Source: Lacrimispora xylanisolvens
GTDB lineage: Bacteria > Bacillota > Clostridia > Lachnospirales > Lachnospiraceae
Assembly (NCBI GenBank): GCA_017084465.1
Contig: CP070896.1
Location: forward strand, 2,407,001-2,471,000
Reading direction: 5' to 3'
Length of the DNA stretch: 64,000 bases
The notes beneath the pieces were generated by a model. It was not told the origin of the DNA. It ran no database searches and saw nothing but the letters and a program-made list of their open reading frames with translations. Of this stretch, positions 11,509-20,332 are shown in pieces (the first letter of the stretch is position 1; each line of letters starts with the position of its first letter). The translations under genes and the position numbers were made by a program.

Positions 11509-11598
11509 AATATATACCCCATCTTTACATATATTAATTTGTAAAATTTTATTGTTATGTTAACCTATTCATTAAATAATTCAACGACAGTTCAAGCA

Positions 11599-12574
11599 TT
11601 ACTGTTTTTTACCCTTTTGCTCCAGTTGCTTTATGCTATCCAAGTAATCCTGCTCCACGCTACTCAACGTTTTAGCTTTGTATTTCTTATATTCTGTCTG
11701 CGCCTTATCCATAGCCTGTATATGGCTGATGCTTCCATTCCCAGTCAGAAGATTTTCACCTGTAGAGGTCAAGATTCCATCGAGGTGCTTGGCCCACTCC
11801 TCCATCGTCATCGGGATTTCCCGTTCTGCCTGTCTTTCTGCAAAATCAAGATATCCTGAAACAAGCTGTCCCATTGCTCGAAGTTCTTTATCATTCAAAT
11901 AGTTCTTTGCAATCTTCGCTTCGCGGAGTGTTGGCTGGTCTCCCGAAAAAGTCATCAAGCCCATAAAATCCTTCTTTGCATCCACACGATGGTAGATGAC
12001 CTCAGCGGCAGTTTCTCCGGAAACTGCATAATGAATTTTGTTCTGCACTCTCTTGAAACTGAGCGGAAATCGCTGCAGTGGGATTGTAATCAACACTGGT
12101 CGCATAGATTTCCAAAACCTGTCGATAGAACACTTTTTCAGATGCTCGGATGTCGCGGATTCTCTCCAACAATTCCTTAAAGTACCCGCCGCCACCCAAT
12201 TCCTTTAAGCGGTCATCATCCATTGCAAAACCTTTTTTGATGTACTCCTTCAATATATTTGTTGCCCATATACGGAACTGCACACCACGCTGGGATTTCA
12301 CACGGTAGCCTACAGAAATAACAACATCTAGGCTATAAAAATCAATCGGTTTATCAGAATGAGCAATGTGCAAATTTTGCACATTGCTTTCTGGCGATAA
12401 TTCGCCTTCTTCAAAAACATTTTTTATATGTTTTGAAATAACACTTCGGTCTCTTTGAAACAGCTCTGCCATCTGGCTTTTTGAAAGCCAAACTGTATCG
12501 TTTTCAAATGATACATCTATTTTTGTCAGACCATCTTCTGTCTGGTAGATTATAATATCTCCGTGTTCGTCCAT
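11599..12574 (-). CDS. RhuM-family protein (Virulence_RhuM)
   Basis: The reconstructed protein is about 325 residues. The start (IIIYQTEDGLTKIDVSFENDTVWLSKSQMAELFQRDRS) and SVISKHIKNVFEEGEL are hallmarks of RhuM proteins, which look like DNA-binding proteins and are found in genomic islands. Frame changes at the AAA at 12056-12058; removing one base joins ISAQF to KRVQNKIHYAVSG. The C-terminal part (DYLDSIKQLEQKGKKQ) is charged and helical. GGAGGATG precedes the start and overlaps the stop of the small gene upstream, so they are coupled. It is the last gene of the accessory block. Function is not established for the family. Confidence 0.82.
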
Positions 12575-12578
12575 GTTG

Positions 12579-12798
12579 TCATCCTCCTGTTCCTTTTTGA
12601 TTCAGTAAGTTTATAACTCTAAGCCACAGATTTATCAATAGAGTGATACAACGTTGTATGCCGCCCCATTCATCAAACAGCTTCTGCTTTAATTGGGCAA
12701 GCGTGATTTCATCCTGAAACTCTGATAATTTTCCAATTAGCTTACCCACCGTCTCAACTTTTATTTTCAGAAATATCATGATAGTCCAAATAACACAT
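12579..12798 (-). CDS. Unknown small protein between helicase and RhuM
   Basis: A short frame of ~72 residues results if one base of the T run 12759-12762 is dropped, joining MCYLDYHDISENK to VETVGKLIGKLSEFQDE. The rest reads ITLAQLKQKLFDEW and a hydrophobic CITLLINLWL segment near the end. Without the correction only 66 codons from a downstream ATG remain. Its TGA lies inside the RhuM ribosome site. No clear ribosome site is seen for its own start. I do not recognise it. It could be a residue of a larger gene. Confidence 0.4.
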
Positions 12799-12817
12799 AA
12801 ACGCTATCTTTATCTAA

Positions 12818-15800
12818 TCACATAAAATATTTTTCTATTAAATGTTTTATTACAGCCGAGTCAATACCTCCGTTAAGGGAGTCTTGGGAAACAATAAGAT
12901 TTTCGTCTTCTACAATGTCATGTTTTTTATACAAAGTTTTCTTCTCTTGCCAGTGTTTACTGTATCCACTATCACCCAGCATACCGCAATGTTCCCAATA
13001 GAAGCAAGTTCCACTTTCAGCATCCTCAATCGTAAAGTCAGGTATACGAATACCATCTTCACCTAAATCAAGTTCTTTTTCATATTCATACTCGATTCCG
13101 GCTTCAAAAAGCATATTTGCAATTATAACTTCTGATTTCGAACGTACCAAGTCCCCCTTCAAAGTGCGATGAATCAAAGCCTGCTCATAATACTTTTTCT
13201 TGTATTCCACAATATTTGGCACTTCAAACAAGCAGGTAAATCTTCTGGCAACCTCTGAACAAGCCATCGAAGAATAATCCCTCAGACGATAAGCAGCGTC
13301 ATTGTATAAAATAACCAGTTTATCCTTCTGCCGTGTAATTGCCGTATACAATAGCTCCTTAGAAAGCATTCTTCCCGGCTCACCAAGAACAAGAATAGCC
13401 TTTCCAAACTCGCTGCCTTGGGCCTTATGTACAGTTAGTGCATATGCCAATTCCAAGTCAGATGTCCCTTCATCAGCAACTACTGATGCCCAGTTATAGT
13501 TGTAAGTGGGCTGAGAAGAAAAAATTACCTGATGTGTATTTTTCTTTGCTTTTGGTTTCTCCCAGATGCGCTCAACGATACCAACTTCACCGTTTGCTAC
13601 ATATCCATCTTCTACTGAACGGGTTTGTGTATTATACCCCTTCATTTTCTGATTACGGATATTAATAACTTTGTCACCAAACACAATACCGTCAGTCCCA
13701 AGTATATGCTTTGTTCCACGCACTTTACAGGTCTTAAGGGCAAGCATCTGCTGTGAACGATACTTCTCATGAATGTATCTATTTATGGTGGCGGTGCCGA
13801 TAGCTTCATCATTTCTGTATGCTGAAAGAATTTGCCAGTTTTCAACTTTCCTCGGCTCTGCTCCAAAGTTCATCCATTCACCACTGGTAGTGCCACCAAT
13901 GGAAACATTAAAACCTTCAATGTCATCAACATCAGTCATTTCTGTTATTTCAGATATTGTTTCAAAGATATTCTGTTCCAATTCTTCTGGTGTACTCCAT
14001 GACTTAAATGCCACATGTTTTCCAAGGTTACCACTTTGTAATTGAAAGAAAATATTGTCATCTAGATTTTCTCCATCACCAGTGTATCATTTGGAAAGCT
14101 CCGTATCTCCACGTGGTTGTCCATCATCAGATTGTTGGCGCATGGTTACGGTCAACTGTCCAAATCCTTTACCCACCCTTGGAAAGTCCATTATCTCCTT
14201 GTTAAGGCTACGTACCAAATCTACAAAAGGCCTACCTGCTCCGATTGGTGGTAGTTGGTTAGGATCACCCACAAAAATGATGCGCTGTGCCTTTTTGCGC
14301 AGAGCCTGCAGGAGAGCACCAAACATCTCCTCAGTCAGCATGGAGCTTTCATCAATAATAACTGTGTAAGGAACGTTCTGTGCTTCTTCATTTGACAGAT
14401 GATATTCCATTGTATATCCATTAAATCGCTTACTTTCACTCAAGAACTGTGCCACGGTCTTTGCTGTACTATCAACACCTTGTTGCTTCATAGCCTGACC
14501 CATGCGGACTCTGGCCTTTCCCGTTGGTGCCAACAGCAGCACTCCACCATCACGTATTTGCGGTGATTTGCATAGCAAAGCAAGTAGTGTCGTTTTCCCG
14601 TCCCAGCACCACCAATTAAAACTGATAATCTTGATTCTGCTAATTCTTTTAGGATTGCAGATTTCTCAGTTCTTGCTCTCTCTTCAAATTCTGTTGACTG
14701 TTGACCTTCAAAAGCACTGTCTACGATACCTCTCCAATTTTCCTGTATTTCATGTCGTTTGCCCTTAAGACGCTTGCCAATAGAAGAACGAATGACCTCG
14801 TCAATCTCAAACAGACGCATCAACTGATATGCTTTGCTGCCATCAGCACATTCCACTATCCAAAGTTCTTCTTGTAAAAAATCAGCAATACTATTCATAA
14901 TATCGCTCGTAACATGACATACCGGCTCAATTGGCATTATGTTTATCTCTTCAATAATTTTATCCAAAGGATATACCGTATGCCCCCACTGTGCCTGTAA
15001 CTCTAACAGACTGATAGTATATGCACGGATTCTTCTTTTATCATTTTCAGAATCCAACGCAGACGGCTTCGGCAATGAATTGGCATTTCTAATTATTTCA
15101 GGCGGAAATACTGCCATATCCACTTTCTTTACTGGAATCAAACTCTCTGGTACACTTCGTCTACTTTGTTCATAAAGGATATACGGGTTTGCAATTATAT
15201 CTTGATCACTGCAATGAATACCATACTGTCTTCTCAACTCAGGATTGAAAACAATCTCTGCCTGTTCATCAGATAATGACATGCGAGAAAGAAGCCAGAA
15301 CAGCTCTTTTCTCTCACCCGAAAGCGACAAGAAGGTATGAATCTCTGTATTACCAAGTGTTGACAATACCAAAGGCGAGAAAAAATCCTTTGGTGATTTC
15401 AAAGCGCCCTGCAATAACGTTTCATAATCAGAAAAATCAGTAATGCGTGCTTTTACTTCCCGTGCTATGATTTCACCACGACGAAATCCGACTGCATTCA
15501 GCATTGATCCCAGTCCAGGAAACACACCTCTATCAAGCCAGACTTCGCGCAAGCGTTCTTTCGTCCATGAAATACACTCATTCCAGTTACCCGATATACA
15601 TTCTTTAATAATTTCAAGTGCTTTAATGGTCTGGAGTAAAACGCTAATCACAGCATCATAAGATAGCTGCTCTGTCGCATAAGAAAACTCTTCAAAATAG
15701 TCATCCTCTCCAAATACTGCAATAGAATTTATATCAAAATCCGGATGCTCCTCGGCATACTCCATCATCTCACGGTATGGAAGGAGGAAGCCATTCTTTC

Positions 15801-16502
15801 TGTCATCACGAATCGAATGCCCCACCATTGTCTCCCAAAGAATAGAGCGCAATGTTCCCGCATCTGTATGGTTATGTTCAGGCGGCTCTTTCAGAGATGT
15901 TACCACACCTATCCCCATAACTACGCGCTTGGCATCATCTATAAAAGGAACCTGTTTTGCGTATGGAATCACCAATGAACAGCCAATATGCACATCTTCA
16001 TAAAATGATTTGAAGATAGCTCTTTGGTTTGCTGCATCCTGAACCCAATTTGTTATGAATGGTAAATCCGGCTCTCTTGATGGATCATAATCAATTCCAA
16101 GACGTTCTGCCAATCCCGCAATGTTAGCATCGCCTCGGTCATCACCTTTTCTCTCAGCATCGTCCAGCCAAACGGTCTTGCTGGAAGTGAATACGGAGGA
16201 TAAACCAATTCGGTCTCCAAGAAATGACCATGCGTACCACCATTTCCTTTTTTATATGGATGCACTGTTGTTTTGAAATACGAATCTGCTGACATGAAGC
16301 AACCGCCTTCTGATAAGCATGGTATCTCTGTTTCATGCCCAGCAATAGGGCAGCCCGCCAGCCTTGCCTCTGCCTCATCGTCGCGGCTATCAGCTATATT
16401 TTTCAGACGCAAACAAGCATTATTATAGCAGGGCTTGTTACATACCAACCCCGAATACCCATTATCTTTCCAAGGTACTCTGATAGATAAATGTCGAGCC
16501 AT
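12818..16502 (-). CDS. Giant RecD-like helicase with N-terminal Cys region and C-terminal PD-(D/E)XK-like domain
   Basis: Reconstruction gives about 1,228 residues starting at the ATG 16500-16502 behind GGGGGGAGG. Parts in order: a Cys-rich N terminus (VCNKPCYNNAC, then CPIAGHETEIPC and GGC); a long helical middle; Walker A GGAGTGKTTLL; Walker B VIIDESSML; FVGDPNQLPPIGAGRPF; AYALTVHKAQGSEF; LLYTAITRQ; and a C-terminal segment with SKSEVIIANMLFEAGIEYEYE, IPDFTIED and FYWEHCGM, which fits a PD-(D/E)XK nuclease core. Two one-base shifts occur at 14593-14596 and about 16174-16181, and there is an in-frame TGA at 14087-14089. It probably unwinds and cuts DNA. Similar large AAA ATPases occur in defence-type islands (recollection, unverified). 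Confidence 0.8.
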
Positions 16503-16646
16503 TCGACTACCTCCCCCCTCATGATTTCTATATTTATTCAATCAACTGCTGCCTAATTCCGCAATACCGTTGGCTTTCAATATTTCATTAATTTCATAAA
16601 TGCTATTAACAGCGCAAGCTCCTAGAATACACTTATACACATATTC

Positions 16647-17047
16647 TTAATCCTTCATGGAAATCAATTTAAAGTCTGTTTTATCAATTAACATTTCTGC
16701 TTCTGGAACAGATAATCTCAATCCCACACATAATCCTAAAACAGATTTAATTGTAGTTGGATACTCTTCATCATTTCTTAGTCTCTGAATAGTCTTTTCA
16801 CCAACTAAGGATGGGTCAGCCAATTTCTTGTTTGATAGCTTTCTCTCAGCTTGGAACTGCACAAATGTTTCGGCAAATGAGCCCGGATATCCTCGCAAAG
16901 CATTTGACCAATTTTTGAATTTTTCATTTGCTCTAATAATATACTATTATGATCATTCATCTCAAATGAAAATTCCTGAGCCGTTACTTGCCCTGGTATT
17001 TTATACATCATTTGAGTGAAACTATTCAGACTATTTATTAAAAACAA
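16647..17047 (-). CDS. XRE-type helix-turn-helix protein, probably N-terminally truncated
   Basis: Joining two frames at the AAA 16897-16899 gives a C-terminal HTH reading SFAETFVQFQAERKLSNKKLADPSL, GEKTIQRLRNDEEYPT and TIKSVLGLCVGLRLSVPEAEMLI, a pattern common in XRE regulators and in ImmA/IrrE-linked proteins. The N-terminal part (MMYKIPGQVTAQEF) lacks a recognisable domain, and the open frame continues upstream to about 17120 without a start, so a 5' part may be lost. After its TAA an in-frame run of 33 codons (16542-16640) continues to a TGA; I cannot say if it is translated. The gene precedes the helicase and may regulate it. Confidence 0.55.
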
Positions 17048-17152
17048 CCCTTTGAAATGTTTCCGCAGAACGTACAGTTTAGACCTTGATTTAAATATTT
17101 TCTATTTCCTGATAGCAGAAAAGTCCTGAAATTAAGCCTTTTTTACACTTCC

Positions 17153-18522
17153 TTATTTCACTTTAGATATCAGAACTACCGTCTCCACATGTGTCGTCCA
17201 GGGAAACATATCACACCCTCTCACCCGGTTAAGCTCATACCCGCTCTCCGCCAGATACTTCAAATCCCTTGCCAACGTCGCAGAGTCGCAGCTCACATAC
17301 ACCACCCGCTTCGGTCCCATCTTCACAATGGTCTCCAGGCATTTTTCATCGCACCCTTTTCTTGGTGGGTCAACCACAATCACATCGGCATAGACCTGAT
17401 TCTTTTCAAACTGTTCCGGCAGTACCTCCTCCGCCTTTCCTACAAAAAACTCTGCGTTCTCAATTCCATTTAACCTTGCATTCTCCCTTGCATCATCAAT
17501 GGCCTGGGGAACGATTTCCAACTCCATAGACCTTCTTCGCTTTCTGAGCCAGAAACAAAGAAATCGTACCGATTCCGCAATACAGATCCCACACTGTTTC
17601 ACCACCGGTAAGTCCCGCATACTCCAAAGCAGTTTCATATAGCTTCTTAGTCTGAACCGGATTAACCTGATAGAAAGAAAGAGGGGAAATACGGTATTGA
17701 ACGGAGCCAATATAATCGGTAATATATCCAGGTCCAAAAAGATTCTCCACCTTGTTACCCAGAATCACATTGGTCTGTTCCTTATTCACATTCAGAGATA
17801 TACTTGTCATTCCCGAAATCTCAAGCAGGCTTTTCACCAGCTCCTCACTGTGCGGAAGCTGATTCCCGTTAATCACCTGACACACCATCAGCTCACCTGT
17901 CTGAAATCCTTTCCGGATCAACGTATGGCGGATCAGTCCCTTATGAGTGCTCTCATCATAAGGAGCCAGATGGTATCGCTCCATATGGGCCTTAATACGA
18001 CCTAACACTTCCCGGTTCTCTTCCACCCCTAACAGACAATCCTCGCACCCGATAATGGCATGAGTCCTCCCTGCATAAAAAACCTGCCACAGGTCTCCCA
18101 TCCTTATCCAGTCCCCAGGGAAACTGTGCTTTATTCCGATATCTCCATGGCTCGTCCATCCCCATAATAGGAAGCATGGGAACATCTTGAAAGCCGCCAA
18201 TCCGGGTAATATTTCCGTAGATTTTGCGTTCCTTGTAGCGAAGTTCCTCTTCGTAGCTCATGGACTGAAGCTGGCAGCCTCCGCACTGCTTCGCTACCGG
18301 ACACAGGGGGGTAATTCTGCTTTCTGACGGCTTGATAATCTGTTCTAAATGCGCAAAGCCGTAATTTTTCTTCACCTTCATGGCTTTTGCTTCCACCTGA
18401 TCACCAATTACTGTATCCTTTATAAACCAGGTAAAACCATCCGTTTTACCAATTCCTTCTCCTGTCTCACTCAGATCCTCAATGATTAACTGGATCCTGT
18501 CATTTTTCTTCCACTCTGCCAT
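17153..18522 (-). CDS. rlmD: 23S rRNA (uracil-C5)-methyltransferase, RlmD/RumA type
   Basis: Three frames join to a protein of about 455 residues. A TRAM domain comes first (NDRIQLIIEDLSETGEGIGKTDGF), then the Fe-S segment CPVAKQCGGCQLQ, the SAM motif WDLYCGIGTISLFLAQKAKKVYGV, and the catalytic region DVIVVDPPRKGCDE and VYVSCDSATLARDL. It methylates a uridine in 23S rRNA using SAM. Frame changes lie at the A run 18077-18082 and at CC 17518-17519; both corrections restore canonical sequence (GFYAGRTH and YGVEIVPQA). The ATG at 18520-18522 has GGAGG before it; a longer upstream frame would overlap the DEAD-box terminator and is rejected. Confidence 0.88.
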
Positions 18523-18583
18523 TTCGTCCTCCAATTGACTCCTCATTTGAACTAATTGTATCCTGTTTTTTCTCAGGAAGCAA

Positions 18584-18646
18584 GAAAAAAACAGGAGCCA
18601 AACAACTCCCGCAAGACAGGACGTCTTCCTTCGTTGTTCAGCTCCC
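18584..18646 (-). terminator. Intrinsic terminator after the DEAD-box gene
   Basis: Minus-strand GGAGCTGAACAAC pairs with GTTGTTTGGCTCC across a 26-base loop and is followed by TGTTTTTTTC. It begins a few bases after the helicase stop. Confidence 0.8.
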
Positions 18647-18652
18647 GAAAAT

Positions 18653-20332
18653 TTATTTGCCTTTTCCGTTGGCTTTTTCCATATGGATATTTTTACCTTT
18701 GATTTTAACATCTTTCATTGCAGTTAATACGGCGTCAGCGCTTTCTCTTGGAACTTCTACAAATGTATATTTGTCATACATGTCGATGCTTCCAACCATC
18801 TTGCCTGGCATACCGGATTCTCCAGCAATGGCACCAAGAATATCTCCTGGTTTGACGTTCTGGTTCTTACCGATGTTAATGAATAAGCGGGCCATGTCAT
18901 CTCTGGTAGAAGAATCATATCTTCCGCCGTTTCCTCCGCGGCCGCCGCTGTTGCTTCTGCCTCTGCCTCTGCCGTTTCCGCCTCCAAAGCCTTCCAGCTC
19001 GTCAAGGGAACGTGGCTCTCTAGTATCGATGATGTCTTCGTTTTCCTCACCCATCATCATACGTAAGAGGGCTGCTGCCAGATCAAGAGAGGTATAATCC
19101 TCTTCTAACAGCTTCTTCTCAATGATATTAACGGTCTTGCTTAAATCAGTATCACCGATGGTTGCTGCAACGCCTTCCAGGATCTTGTCTACCTTAATTG
19201 CAGTTACATCGTTAAGAGATGGAATTGCCTGAGGTACGATCTTGGTCTTGCAGTAACGCTGAATGTCACGAAGCTTGTATACTTCCTTGCCAACAACAAA
19301 GCTGAATGCGATTCCTTCACGTCCTGCACGACCGGTACGGCCGATACGGTGTACGTAGTATTCGTCATCCTGTGGAAGGTCATAGTTAAATACCGCTTCT
19401 ACGTCGTCTACGTCGATTCCACGGGCTGCTACGTCGGTAGCCACAAGAATCTCTGTCTTACCGTTACGGAAGCTGTTCATGACACGGTCACGCTGAATCT
19501 GCTTTAAGTCTCCGTGAAGACCTTCTGCAAAATATCCTCTTCCCTGAAGAGACTGTACCAGCTCATCAACCTGCTTCTTGGTGTTACAGAAAACAACGGA
19601 AAGCTTAGGTGCATACATATCTAACAGACGACACATTACTTCTAATTTACTCTTTGGTTTTACTTCATAATAATACTGGGTCACTTTCGGGACTGTCAGT
19701 TCTTTCTTCACTACTTTAACATTTACCGGCTCCTGCTGGAACTTTCTTGCAATATCAAGAATTGCCGGAGGCATGGTAGCGGAGAACATAACGGTCTGAC
19801 GCTCTTCGGGAAGCTGGCTTAAAATCGTTTCCATATCCTCTAAAAATCCCATGTTCAGCATCTCATCTGCCTCATCCATAACAACTGTATGGACAAAATC
19901 AAACTTAACGGTTTTCCGGCGCATATGATCCATAACACGTCCCGGAGTTCCGATGATGATCTGAGTACCGTCTTTTAAAGAACGGATCTGTTTCACAATG
20001 TCCTGGCCTCCGTAGATAGGGAGAACCTTCACACCATGCATATATTTAGCAAGCCTGCGGATCTCATCTGCCACCTGAATAGCAAGCTCTCTGGTTGGAC
20101 AGAGGGCCACCGCCTGAAGCTTTACCTTAGGGTCAATTTTCTGTAACAGGGGAATACCAAAGGCAGCGGTCTTTCCAGTTCCTGTCTGGGCCTGACCAAT
20201 GATATCTCTTCCCTCCAGCTGTACCGGAATTGCCTGGGTCTGGATCGGAGATGCCTCTTCAAATCCCATATCTGCTACTGCCCGCAGAATTCTTTCATCT
20301 AATTGTAACTCATCAAATCTAACTGTTTCCAT
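18653..20332 (-). CDS. DEAD-box ATP-dependent RNA helicase with DbpA-type RNA-binding domain
   Basis: The 559-residue protein has the Q motif region (FEEASPIQTQAIP), Walker A AQTGTGKT at 48-55, DEAD near 155, SAT, RGIDV and HRIGRTGRAGR. After the two RecA domains comes a Gly/Arg-rich linker (GGGNGRGRGRSNSGGRG) and a C-terminal RRM-like domain (MARLFINIGKNQNVKPGDILGAI, KYTFVEVPRES) as in DbpA/DeaD/CshA proteins. It remodels RNA in ribosome assembly or decay, often in the cold. AGAAAGGAA lies somewhat far from the ATG. It has its own strong promoter and a leader hairpin. No frame errors are seen. Confidence 0.93.
   Translation of the reverse strand: METVRFDELQLDERILRAVADMGFEEASPIQTQAIPVQLEGRDIIGQAQTGTGKTAAFGIPLLQKIDPKVKLQAVALCPTRELAIQVADEIRRLAKYMHGVKVLPIYGGQDIVKQIRSLKDGTQIIIGTPGRVMDHMRRKTVKFDFVHTVVMDEADEMLNMGFLEDMETILSQLPEERQTVMFSATMPPAILDIARKFQQEPVNVKVVKKELTVPKVTQYYYEVKPKSKLEVMCRLLDMYAPKLSVVFCNTKKQVDELVQSLQGRGYFAEGLHGDLKQIQRDRVMNSFRNGKTEILVATDVAARGIDVDDVEAVFNYDLPQDDEYYVHRIGRTGRAGREGIAFSFVVGKEVYKLRDIQRYCKTKIVPQAIPSLNDVTAIKVDKILEGVAATIGDTDLSKTVNIIEKKLLEEDYTSLDLAAALLRMMMGEENEDIIDTREPRSLDELEGFGGGNGRGRGRSNSGGRGGNGGRYDSSTRDDMARLFINIGKNQNVKPGDILGAIAGESGMPGKMVGSIDMYDKYTFVEVPRESADAVLTAMKDVKIKGKNIHMEKANGKGK

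What the first reader, a model, noticed from the sequence alone, without database searches (positions are those of the whole stretch)
11599..17047. Accessory operon: HTH gene, giant helicase-nuclease, small unknown gene, RhuM
Four same-strand genes sit in tight order between housekeeping genes. A RecD-type helicase of about 1,228 residues with a C-terminal PD-(D/E)XK-like segment, an island-associated RhuM protein and an XRE-type gene make a plausible uncharacterised phage-defence or DNA-processing module. RhuM is coupled to the small gene, whose stop lies in its ribosome site.
Basis: partly seen in the sequence, partly recalled or inferred. Interest (0 to 1): 0.75.

Follow-up and report, generated by a model that had tools for sequence, protein, structure and literature searches.

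The report
Phage-defence helicase-nuclease in variable hotspot
At a spot where related bacteria swap genes in and out, this bacterium carries a large DNA-unwinding enzyme that ends in what looks like a DNA-cutting domain; related enzymes sit beside several different bacterial immune systems, which suggests a plug-in weapon that many systems share.

Summary
On the minus strand lie an XRE-like HTH gene, a RecD-type helicase with a C-terminal PD-(D/E)XK-like domain, a 66-codon ORF and RhuM. HTH, helicase and RhuM are frameshifted in this assembly, as is the flanking 23S rRNA methyltransferase gene. The helicase pieces together match PADLOC's uncharacterised candidate PDC-S68 nearly end to end. 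The region is an insertion: one same-genus genome has the empty site, and in 12 of 12 fetched same-genus loci synteny stops at the same gene end, where four carry Gabija, RM genes or RhuM. Of 18 relatives with the whole gene, 14 lie near PADLOC-detected genes (BREX, type I and III RM, Druantia E and others); 7 of 18 directly adjoin a TmtA-like GHKL/sacsin gene. Two closely similar type III RM operons hold PDC-S68 genes only 26% identical in the same slot, as if effectors were swapped. RhuM was near PDC-S68 in 0 of 31 other occurrences, so the four-gene 'operon' is not supported as a unit. Best reading: an ATP-driven helicase-nuclease defence effector plus a separately acquired RhuM. Function is untested; this copy may be broken.

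The parts
11582..17174 (.). accessory island: absent from G646, where 189 bp separate the sequence matching window 11581 from that matching window 17175
16647..17047 (-). XRE/Cro-C1-like HTH gene in two overlapping frames (17047-16805 and 16898-16647); weak family match
   Evidence: PF13443 E 0.08
12818..16541 (-). PDC-S68 RecD-type helicase-nuclease in four overlapping frame pieces; likely start codon at 16502
14614..16502 (-). N-terminal region of about 600 residues, with C21/C30/C62 (L014 numbering) invariant in 15 of 15 relatives; no PDB match at E<=0.001 for the model of relative L014
13184..14613 (-). SF1B RecD-like motor: Walker A at 14613-14593, Walker B DESSM, UvrD_C_2
12821..13183 (-). 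C-terminal PD-(D/E)XK-like domain: E295, PDF325-327, WEH340-342, K358 (numbering of window:12821-14014), invariant in 17 of 17
12579..12779 (-). 66-codon ORF; 29-residue match to a BrxA model (26.5 bits); remnant or leader ORF
11599..12574 (-). RhuM family gene (PF13310, PDC-S05) in two frame pieces; paralogue in own genome, intact relative in G648
17153..18711 (-). 23S rRNA m5U methyltransferase-type gene (TRAM + PF05958) flanking the hotspot; three overlapping ORFs here, one ORF of 459-554 codons in 12 of 12 fetched same-genus loci

Best explanation
The island is a horizontally acquired anti-phage defence insertion at a variable site beside the 23S rRNA methyltransferase gene. Its main gene is a PDC-S68 helicase-nuclease. 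Inferred mechanism: the ATP-driven SF1B (RecD/Pif1-like) motor loads on exposed or single-stranded ends of invading or replicating phage DNA, translocates 5'->3', and feeds the strand to the C-terminal PD-(D/E)XK-like nuclease, degrading it. The unusual N-terminal region of about 600 residues, with a conserved cysteine cluster, is the likely place for docking to a partner (BREX, RM, a GHKL/sacsin protein) or for substrate gating. In other genomes the gene serves as an effector fitted to systems that tell self from non-self; here it stands without such a system. RhuM is a second candidate defence gene, acquired independently and placed downstream; the HTH gene is the probable local regulator. 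Shown: sequence family, motifs, island status, neighbourhood pattern. Inferred: polarity, nuclease activity, loading, regulation, defence phenotype.
For: PDC-S68 matches for all four helicase pieces, E 2e-156 to 1.1e-38. Motor: best solved-structure matches RecD2 (3gpl E 2.2e-10) and RecBCD RecD (5ld2_D 4.9e-9). Nuclease-like motif invariant in 17 of 17, in helix-strand-strand-helix-strand order in the model. 14 of 18 relatives with the whole gene near PADLOC-detected genes, including a BREX operon brxA-brxB-brxC-pglX-pglZ-SNF2-TmtA-like-PDC-S68 in G556. GHKL/sacsin (TmtA-like) gene directly adjacent in 7 of 18; in the family sample 3 of the 5 genomes with a relative of that protein have PDC-S68 beside it, against PDC-S68 in 7 of 298 non-own genomes overall. 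Slot swap: type III operons of G035 and G296, Snf2 97% and Res 91% identical, PDC-S68 26%. Variable site: synteny ends at window 17166-17204 in 12 of 12 fetched loci and in 23 of 24 genus genomes by their listed matches (G647 is the exception), with Gabija + TmtA-like, type II/IIG RM, type I MTase or RhuM there in four. G190, another genus, has PDC-S68 beside a methyltransferase gene of the same family.
Against: No activity of a PDC-S68 protein was found in print. The lysine expected two residues after the second acid is missing (WEHxG; an invariant K358 lies in the next helix), so nuclease activity is not assured. Foldseek's 50 listed matches did not pick out the nuclease domain. Pfam gives only sub-threshold matches: for the window piece DUF7200 at E 0.071, for two relatives TPD at 0.013 and 0.03. 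4 of 18 relatives showed no defence neighbour: one ORF beside L014 was scanned without a hit; neighbours of L033, L070 and L071 were not scanned. PADLOC's PDC models were themselves built from neighbourhoods, so part of the association is circular; L026 rests on PDC models alone. In 8 of 11 viral-collection contigs no neighbour matched my small set of defence proteins. HTH, helicase and RhuM are all frameshifted in this assembly.
Confidence: 0.72

Rival explanations
1. One reading: HTH, helicase, small protein and RhuM form one co-functional defence operon, for example with RhuM as sensor or regulator and the helicase-nuclease as effector.
For: Same strand; small ORF stop in the RhuM ribosome site. 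A loose parallel in L026: the PDC-S68 stop overlaps a PDC-M59A gene followed by a Fic gene, PDC-M59B; that Fic gene matches the C-terminal part of PDC-S23, a model whose N-terminal part matches window RhuM.
Against: RhuM near PDC-S68 in 0 of 31 other occurrences; RhuM without the helicase at the same site in G648 and elsewhere in the own genome. DNA homology of those RhuM genes to the window stops at the RhuM start codon, so the small ORF does not travel with them.
Confidence: 0.12
2. Decayed remnant of a larger BREX-type operon: core genes deleted, leaving the accessory helicase, a scrap of brxA and a later RhuM; now non-functional.
For: BREX operons with PDC-S68 as last gene exist in the family; the small ORF matches a BrxA model over 29 residues at E 9.6e-7; HTH, helicase and RhuM are frameshifted; both RhuM copies of this genome are split near the same place, which random errors would not readily give.
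Against: The BrxA match is short, with no BLAST similarity to the BrxA of G556; the housekeeping methyltransferase gene is split too while a single ORF in 12 of 12 relatives, pointing to assembly errors; the motif residues are conserved.
Confidence: 0.15
3. A DNA repair or replication helicase (RecD2-like) carried on mobile DNA, with no defence role.
For: Motor matches RecD2 and RecD. Copies without a seen defence neighbour exist (L014, L070). Four viral-collection contigs (L094-L097) carry it near ORFs that by eye look like phage tail genes.
Against: RecD2 equivalog cut-off (500 bits) not reached by any piece; patchy distribution; repeated placement in operons with BREX, type III RM, DruE and TmtA-like genes.
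Confidence: 0.1

Closest known systems
PADLOC PDC-S68 (phage defence candidate, models PDLC05064-05066)
   Same: the four helicase pieces match in order, positions 5-1219 of 1221 of PDLC05065 with gaps at the breaks
   Different: no paper in the library searched names PDC-S68; here beside RhuM rather than in a larger known system
RecD2 / RecBCD RecD (SF1B helicases)
   Same: motor domain; best solved-structure matches
   Different: extra N-terminal region of about 600 residues and a C-terminal nuclease-like domain; equivalog cut-offs not reached by the pieces
BREX with auxiliary nuclease effectors (PMC12839542; outline, twelve passages and part 1 of section 35 read)
   Same: PDC-S68 is the last gene of a BREX operon in G556; the paper describes auxiliary PD-(D/E)XK and other nucleases fitted to BREX
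   Different: its main text has no 'RecD' or 'RhuM'; the window has no BREX core genes
Hachiman HamAB and Druantia DruE (starts of abstracts seen)
   Same: a helicase coupled to a nuclease as defence machine
   Different: other proteins: Hachiman has its nuclease in a separate subunit, HamA; no sequence relation to PDC-S68 was tested for Hachiman
RhuM family, PADLOC PDC-S05, PF13310
   Same: both window pieces match
   Different: not near PDC-S68 in 0 of 31 other occurrences, i.e. no linkage seen

Membership tests
PDC-S68 | match over the profile, in order | tested here: met
   pieces cover 5-125, 127-642, 639-793 and 823-1219 of 1221
PDC-S68 | embedded in or next to known defence systems | tested here: inconclusive
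   met for 14 of 18 relatives; for the window itself only RhuM, itself a candidate, and the variable site
RecD2 (TIGR01448 equivalog) | curated cut-off of 500 bits | tested here: not met
   pieces score 90.1, 72.4 and 31.0 bits, searched apart; intact relatives were not run against NCBIfam
SF1B helicase | Walker A and B and the C-terminal motor half | tested here: met
PD-(D/E)XK nuclease | acidic motif residues in the family's fold | tested here: inconclusive
   E, PD and E conserved with fitting secondary structure, but no lysine at the usual place and only sub-threshold family matches
BREX | brxC, pglX and pglZ present in the island | tested here: not met
   no such match among the nine island ORF pieces scanned; the rest of the genome was not searched for them
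RhuM (PF13310) | score above the Pfam cut-off of 33.7 bits | tested here: met
   161.4 and 165.9 bits for the two pieces
Working defence system | protection against phage | not testable with these tools
   needs a plaque assay

The most novel reading that the evidence does not exclude
PDC-S68 is a universal plug-in effector: one helicase-nuclease cartridge that docks, through its unusual N-terminal region, onto unrelated self/non-self systems (BREX, type I and III RM, Druantia-like, GHKL/sacsin proteins), is exchanged between distant lineages within one operon slot, and can also work alone or with a local partner such as RhuM.
Probability: 0.35. Interest if true: 0.78.

Novelty: new member of a known kind. 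Interest (0 to 1): 0.5.

Why it matters
If PDC-S68 is a shared effector, it would show a defence part traded between otherwise unrelated immune systems, and would give some methylation-based systems an extra DNA-degrading arm. The pair of closely similar type III operons with unlike PDC-S68 genes in the same slot makes this testable by swapping.

Tried and rejected
MADS: PADLOC 'mad2' hits in L025 and L013 rejected; the L025 gene is the TRAM + PF05958 methyltransferase, and mad2 also matches ordinary RM methyltransferases. In my notes the gene between the SNF2 helicase and PDC-S68 in the BREX-like operons was first guessed to be a methyltransferase; Pfam shows sacsin/GHKL ATPase instead.

BrxA for the small ORF: the 29-residue HMM match is kept as a lead only; no BLAST support.

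Integration element: no tRNA in the window, no direct or inverted repeat of 9 bases or more between the two 301-base edge stretches compared; mechanism of insertion unknown.

Plasmid and phage collections: no plasmid record holds 80% of the region, 35 records hold 60-80% identical pieces; two unannotated phage records match one helicase piece at 23-27% identity.

N-terminal region: model with mean pLDDT 85 but no PDB match at E<=0.001. The second structural aligner was not available. The viral-collection scan kept 80 of 166 relatives; only L091-L101, which cover most of the query, were examined; the other 69 were dropped unread as mostly helicase-core matches. The tree used 25 C-terminal pieces and left out L028, L034, L069, L093-L095 and L100.

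Full report
WHAT IS THERE. On the minus strand, between a methyltransferase gene of the 23S rRNA m5U type (18711-17153; TRAM + PF05958) and an acetyltransferase-like ORF (11508-10984, named by eye), lie an HTH gene, a large helicase, a 66-codon ORF and RhuM. In this assembly the helicase reads as four overlapping frame pieces, RhuM and the HTH gene as two each. The methyltransferase gene is in three pieces here but one ORF of 459-554 codons in 12 of 12 fetched same-genus loci; the genome is rated 89.5% complete in one contig. I therefore think assembly errors the likelier cause, but decay is not excluded: both RhuM copies of this genome are split near the same place, while G648 has an intact one.

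THE HELICASE. All four pieces match PADLOC PDC-S68 in order, from profile position 5 to 1219 of 1221 with gaps at the breaks. An alignment of 16 intact relatives shows Walker A, Walker B, a QLPPIG motif and C-terminal motor motifs. Solved relatives are RecD2 and the RecD subunit of RecBCD. The last 120 or so residues hold an invariant glutamate, a PDF and a WEHxG motif (17 of 17), in a helix-strand-strand-helix-strand order that fits a PD-(D/E)XK core (model mean pLDDT 79.9, pTM 0.60). The lysine expected two residues after the second acid is absent; an invariant lysine lies in the next helix. Pfam gives only sub-threshold matches in 4 of 10 domains scanned: DUF7200 for the window's, TPD and NucS_N for relatives; that TPD is a PD-(D/E)XK family is recalled, not from a call. 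The first 611 residues of relative L014 give a confident model (mean pLDDT 85, residues 12-38 poor) without any PDB match at E<=0.001.

AN ISLAND AT A VARIABLE SITE. G646 of the same genus lacks the region: 189 bp separate the sequence matching window 11581 from that matching 17175. For the helicase region no DNA match is listed in any of the 24 other genus genomes (at most 12 candidates per genome are scored). Matches to the methyltransferase side begin at window 17166-17204 in 23 of those 24 (in G647 the match begins later). I fetched the site in 12 of the 24 and found the same limit in 12 of 12. From five of these twelve I scanned ten ORFs against PADLOC: G645 has GajA, GajB and a TmtA-like gene, G637 type II and IIG RM genes, G640 a type I methyltransferase, G648 RhuM; the one ORF of G633 had no hit. 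Several of the other loci hold ORFs that by eye are not defence genes, so the site is variable rather than defence-only; G643 has a RhuM fragment there. G190, of another genus, carries PDC-S68 554 bp from the end of a methyltransferase gene of the same family.

COMPANY KEPT ELSEWHERE. PDC-S68 (E<=1e-50) is in 7 of 298 non-own genomes of the family sample, 9 of 391 of the order sample and 5 of 397 of the phylum sample; samples overlap. With four loci, 21 non-window occurrences were found; neighbourhoods of 20 were read (G986 was not fetched). In two of the 20 (L028, L034) the gene is partial; in two (L023, L069) it is whole but broken by a stop codon. PADLOC detects genes of its models in the stretch fetched for 14 of the 18 whole ones: type I RM (L013, L069), BREX-like operons (L015, L022, L030), TmtA-like with DpdF further on (L023), type III RM (L024) and the same type of operon by BLAST with an HKD-Snf2 PADLOC hit (L027), TmtA-like (L025, L031), Z1 helicase + PDC-M33 (L016) and PDC-M59 (L026), DruE (L032), GajA + NERD helicase (L072). 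L015's PglZ and SNF2 are assigned by BLAST clustering. None was seen for L014 (one ORF scanned), L033, L070 and L071 (not scanned). In L013 the RM genes start 3.7 kb away and in L072 GajA lies on the other strand, so those links are loose. Of 11 viral-collection contigs, 3 (L091, L092, L098) have a neighbour matching my reference set of defence proteins, 8 do not.

A RECURRING PARTNER. In 7 of 18 (L015, L022, L023, L025, L030, L031, L069) the gene next to PDC-S68, on the same strand and within 35 bp or overlapping, encodes a protein like PADLOC TmtA; Pfam, run on the L022 protein only, shows sacsin/GHKL ATPase; for L030 the assignment is by BLAST clustering. 'Tiamat' as the system of TmtA is recalled. 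In the family sample 5 of 299 genomes have such a gene at E<=1e-20 and 3 of these 5 have PDC-S68 adjacent. The window has none.

SLOT SWAP. G035 and G296 share an operon: Snf2 97%, DUF4391 85%, Res 91% and Mod 50% identical. 21-22 bp after Res both have PDC-S68, but these are only 26% identical, and listed DNA homology ends at the Res stop. On a tree of 25 C-terminal pieces the two lie on distant branches, and the window's nearest three relatives (72-81% identical) have three different settings. This suggests an exchangeable effector module.

RHUM. A tblastn search with the intact RhuM of G648 found none in 37 loci that cover 31 other PDC-S68 occurrences, 20 from host genomes and 11 from the viral collection. 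Pairing of RhuM with PDC-S68 is thus known to me only from this window.

LITERATURE. PDC-S68 is named in none of the papers searched. PDCs are described as unvalidated candidates found by guilt-by-embedding (PMC12988326, passages; PMC12482510, passages). The BREX survey PMC12839542 has no 'RecD' or 'RhuM' in its main text but describes auxiliary nucleases fitted to BREX (section 35 part 1). A search for Tiamat with RecD found nothing; in a search with sacsin and BREX the ten papers listed of 77 hold no 'sacsin'. The library lacks most subscription papers and bioRxiv's own collection.

VERDICT. A mobile defence-type helicase-nuclease is well supported as a reading of sequence and context; its mechanism is inferred; the four-gene module with RhuM is not supported.

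Noticed in passing
L029:9928-10901 (own genome, region of base 1,237,030): A second RhuM copy (91% and 87% identical in its two parts), also split near the same place as the window copy, close to ORFs that by eye look like an IS66-type transposase set.
   Followed up: partly
L025:3495-8519, L069:13891-18774, L031:11740-16104: Long variants of the TmtA-like partner carry a C-terminal stretch matching MkoA helicase models: a GHKL ATPase apparently fused to a helicase (L031's is in pieces).
   Followed up: partly
L030:4065-7703: 1212-residue protein with TPR repeats and a PIN-TPR-GreABC domain next to the end of the BREX + PDC-S68 operon; no PADLOC hit.
   Followed up: no
L069:9530-10192: YgjP-like metallopeptidase gene between hsdR and PDC-S68.
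   Followed up: no
L094-L097: PDC-S68 in contigs of the viral collection near ORFs that by eye resemble tail genes: possible prophage-borne cargo.
   Followed up: partly
control genomes: The PDC-S68 search rings in Methanocaldococcus jannaschii (1 of 14 control genomes), so the family may reach archaea.
   Followed up: no
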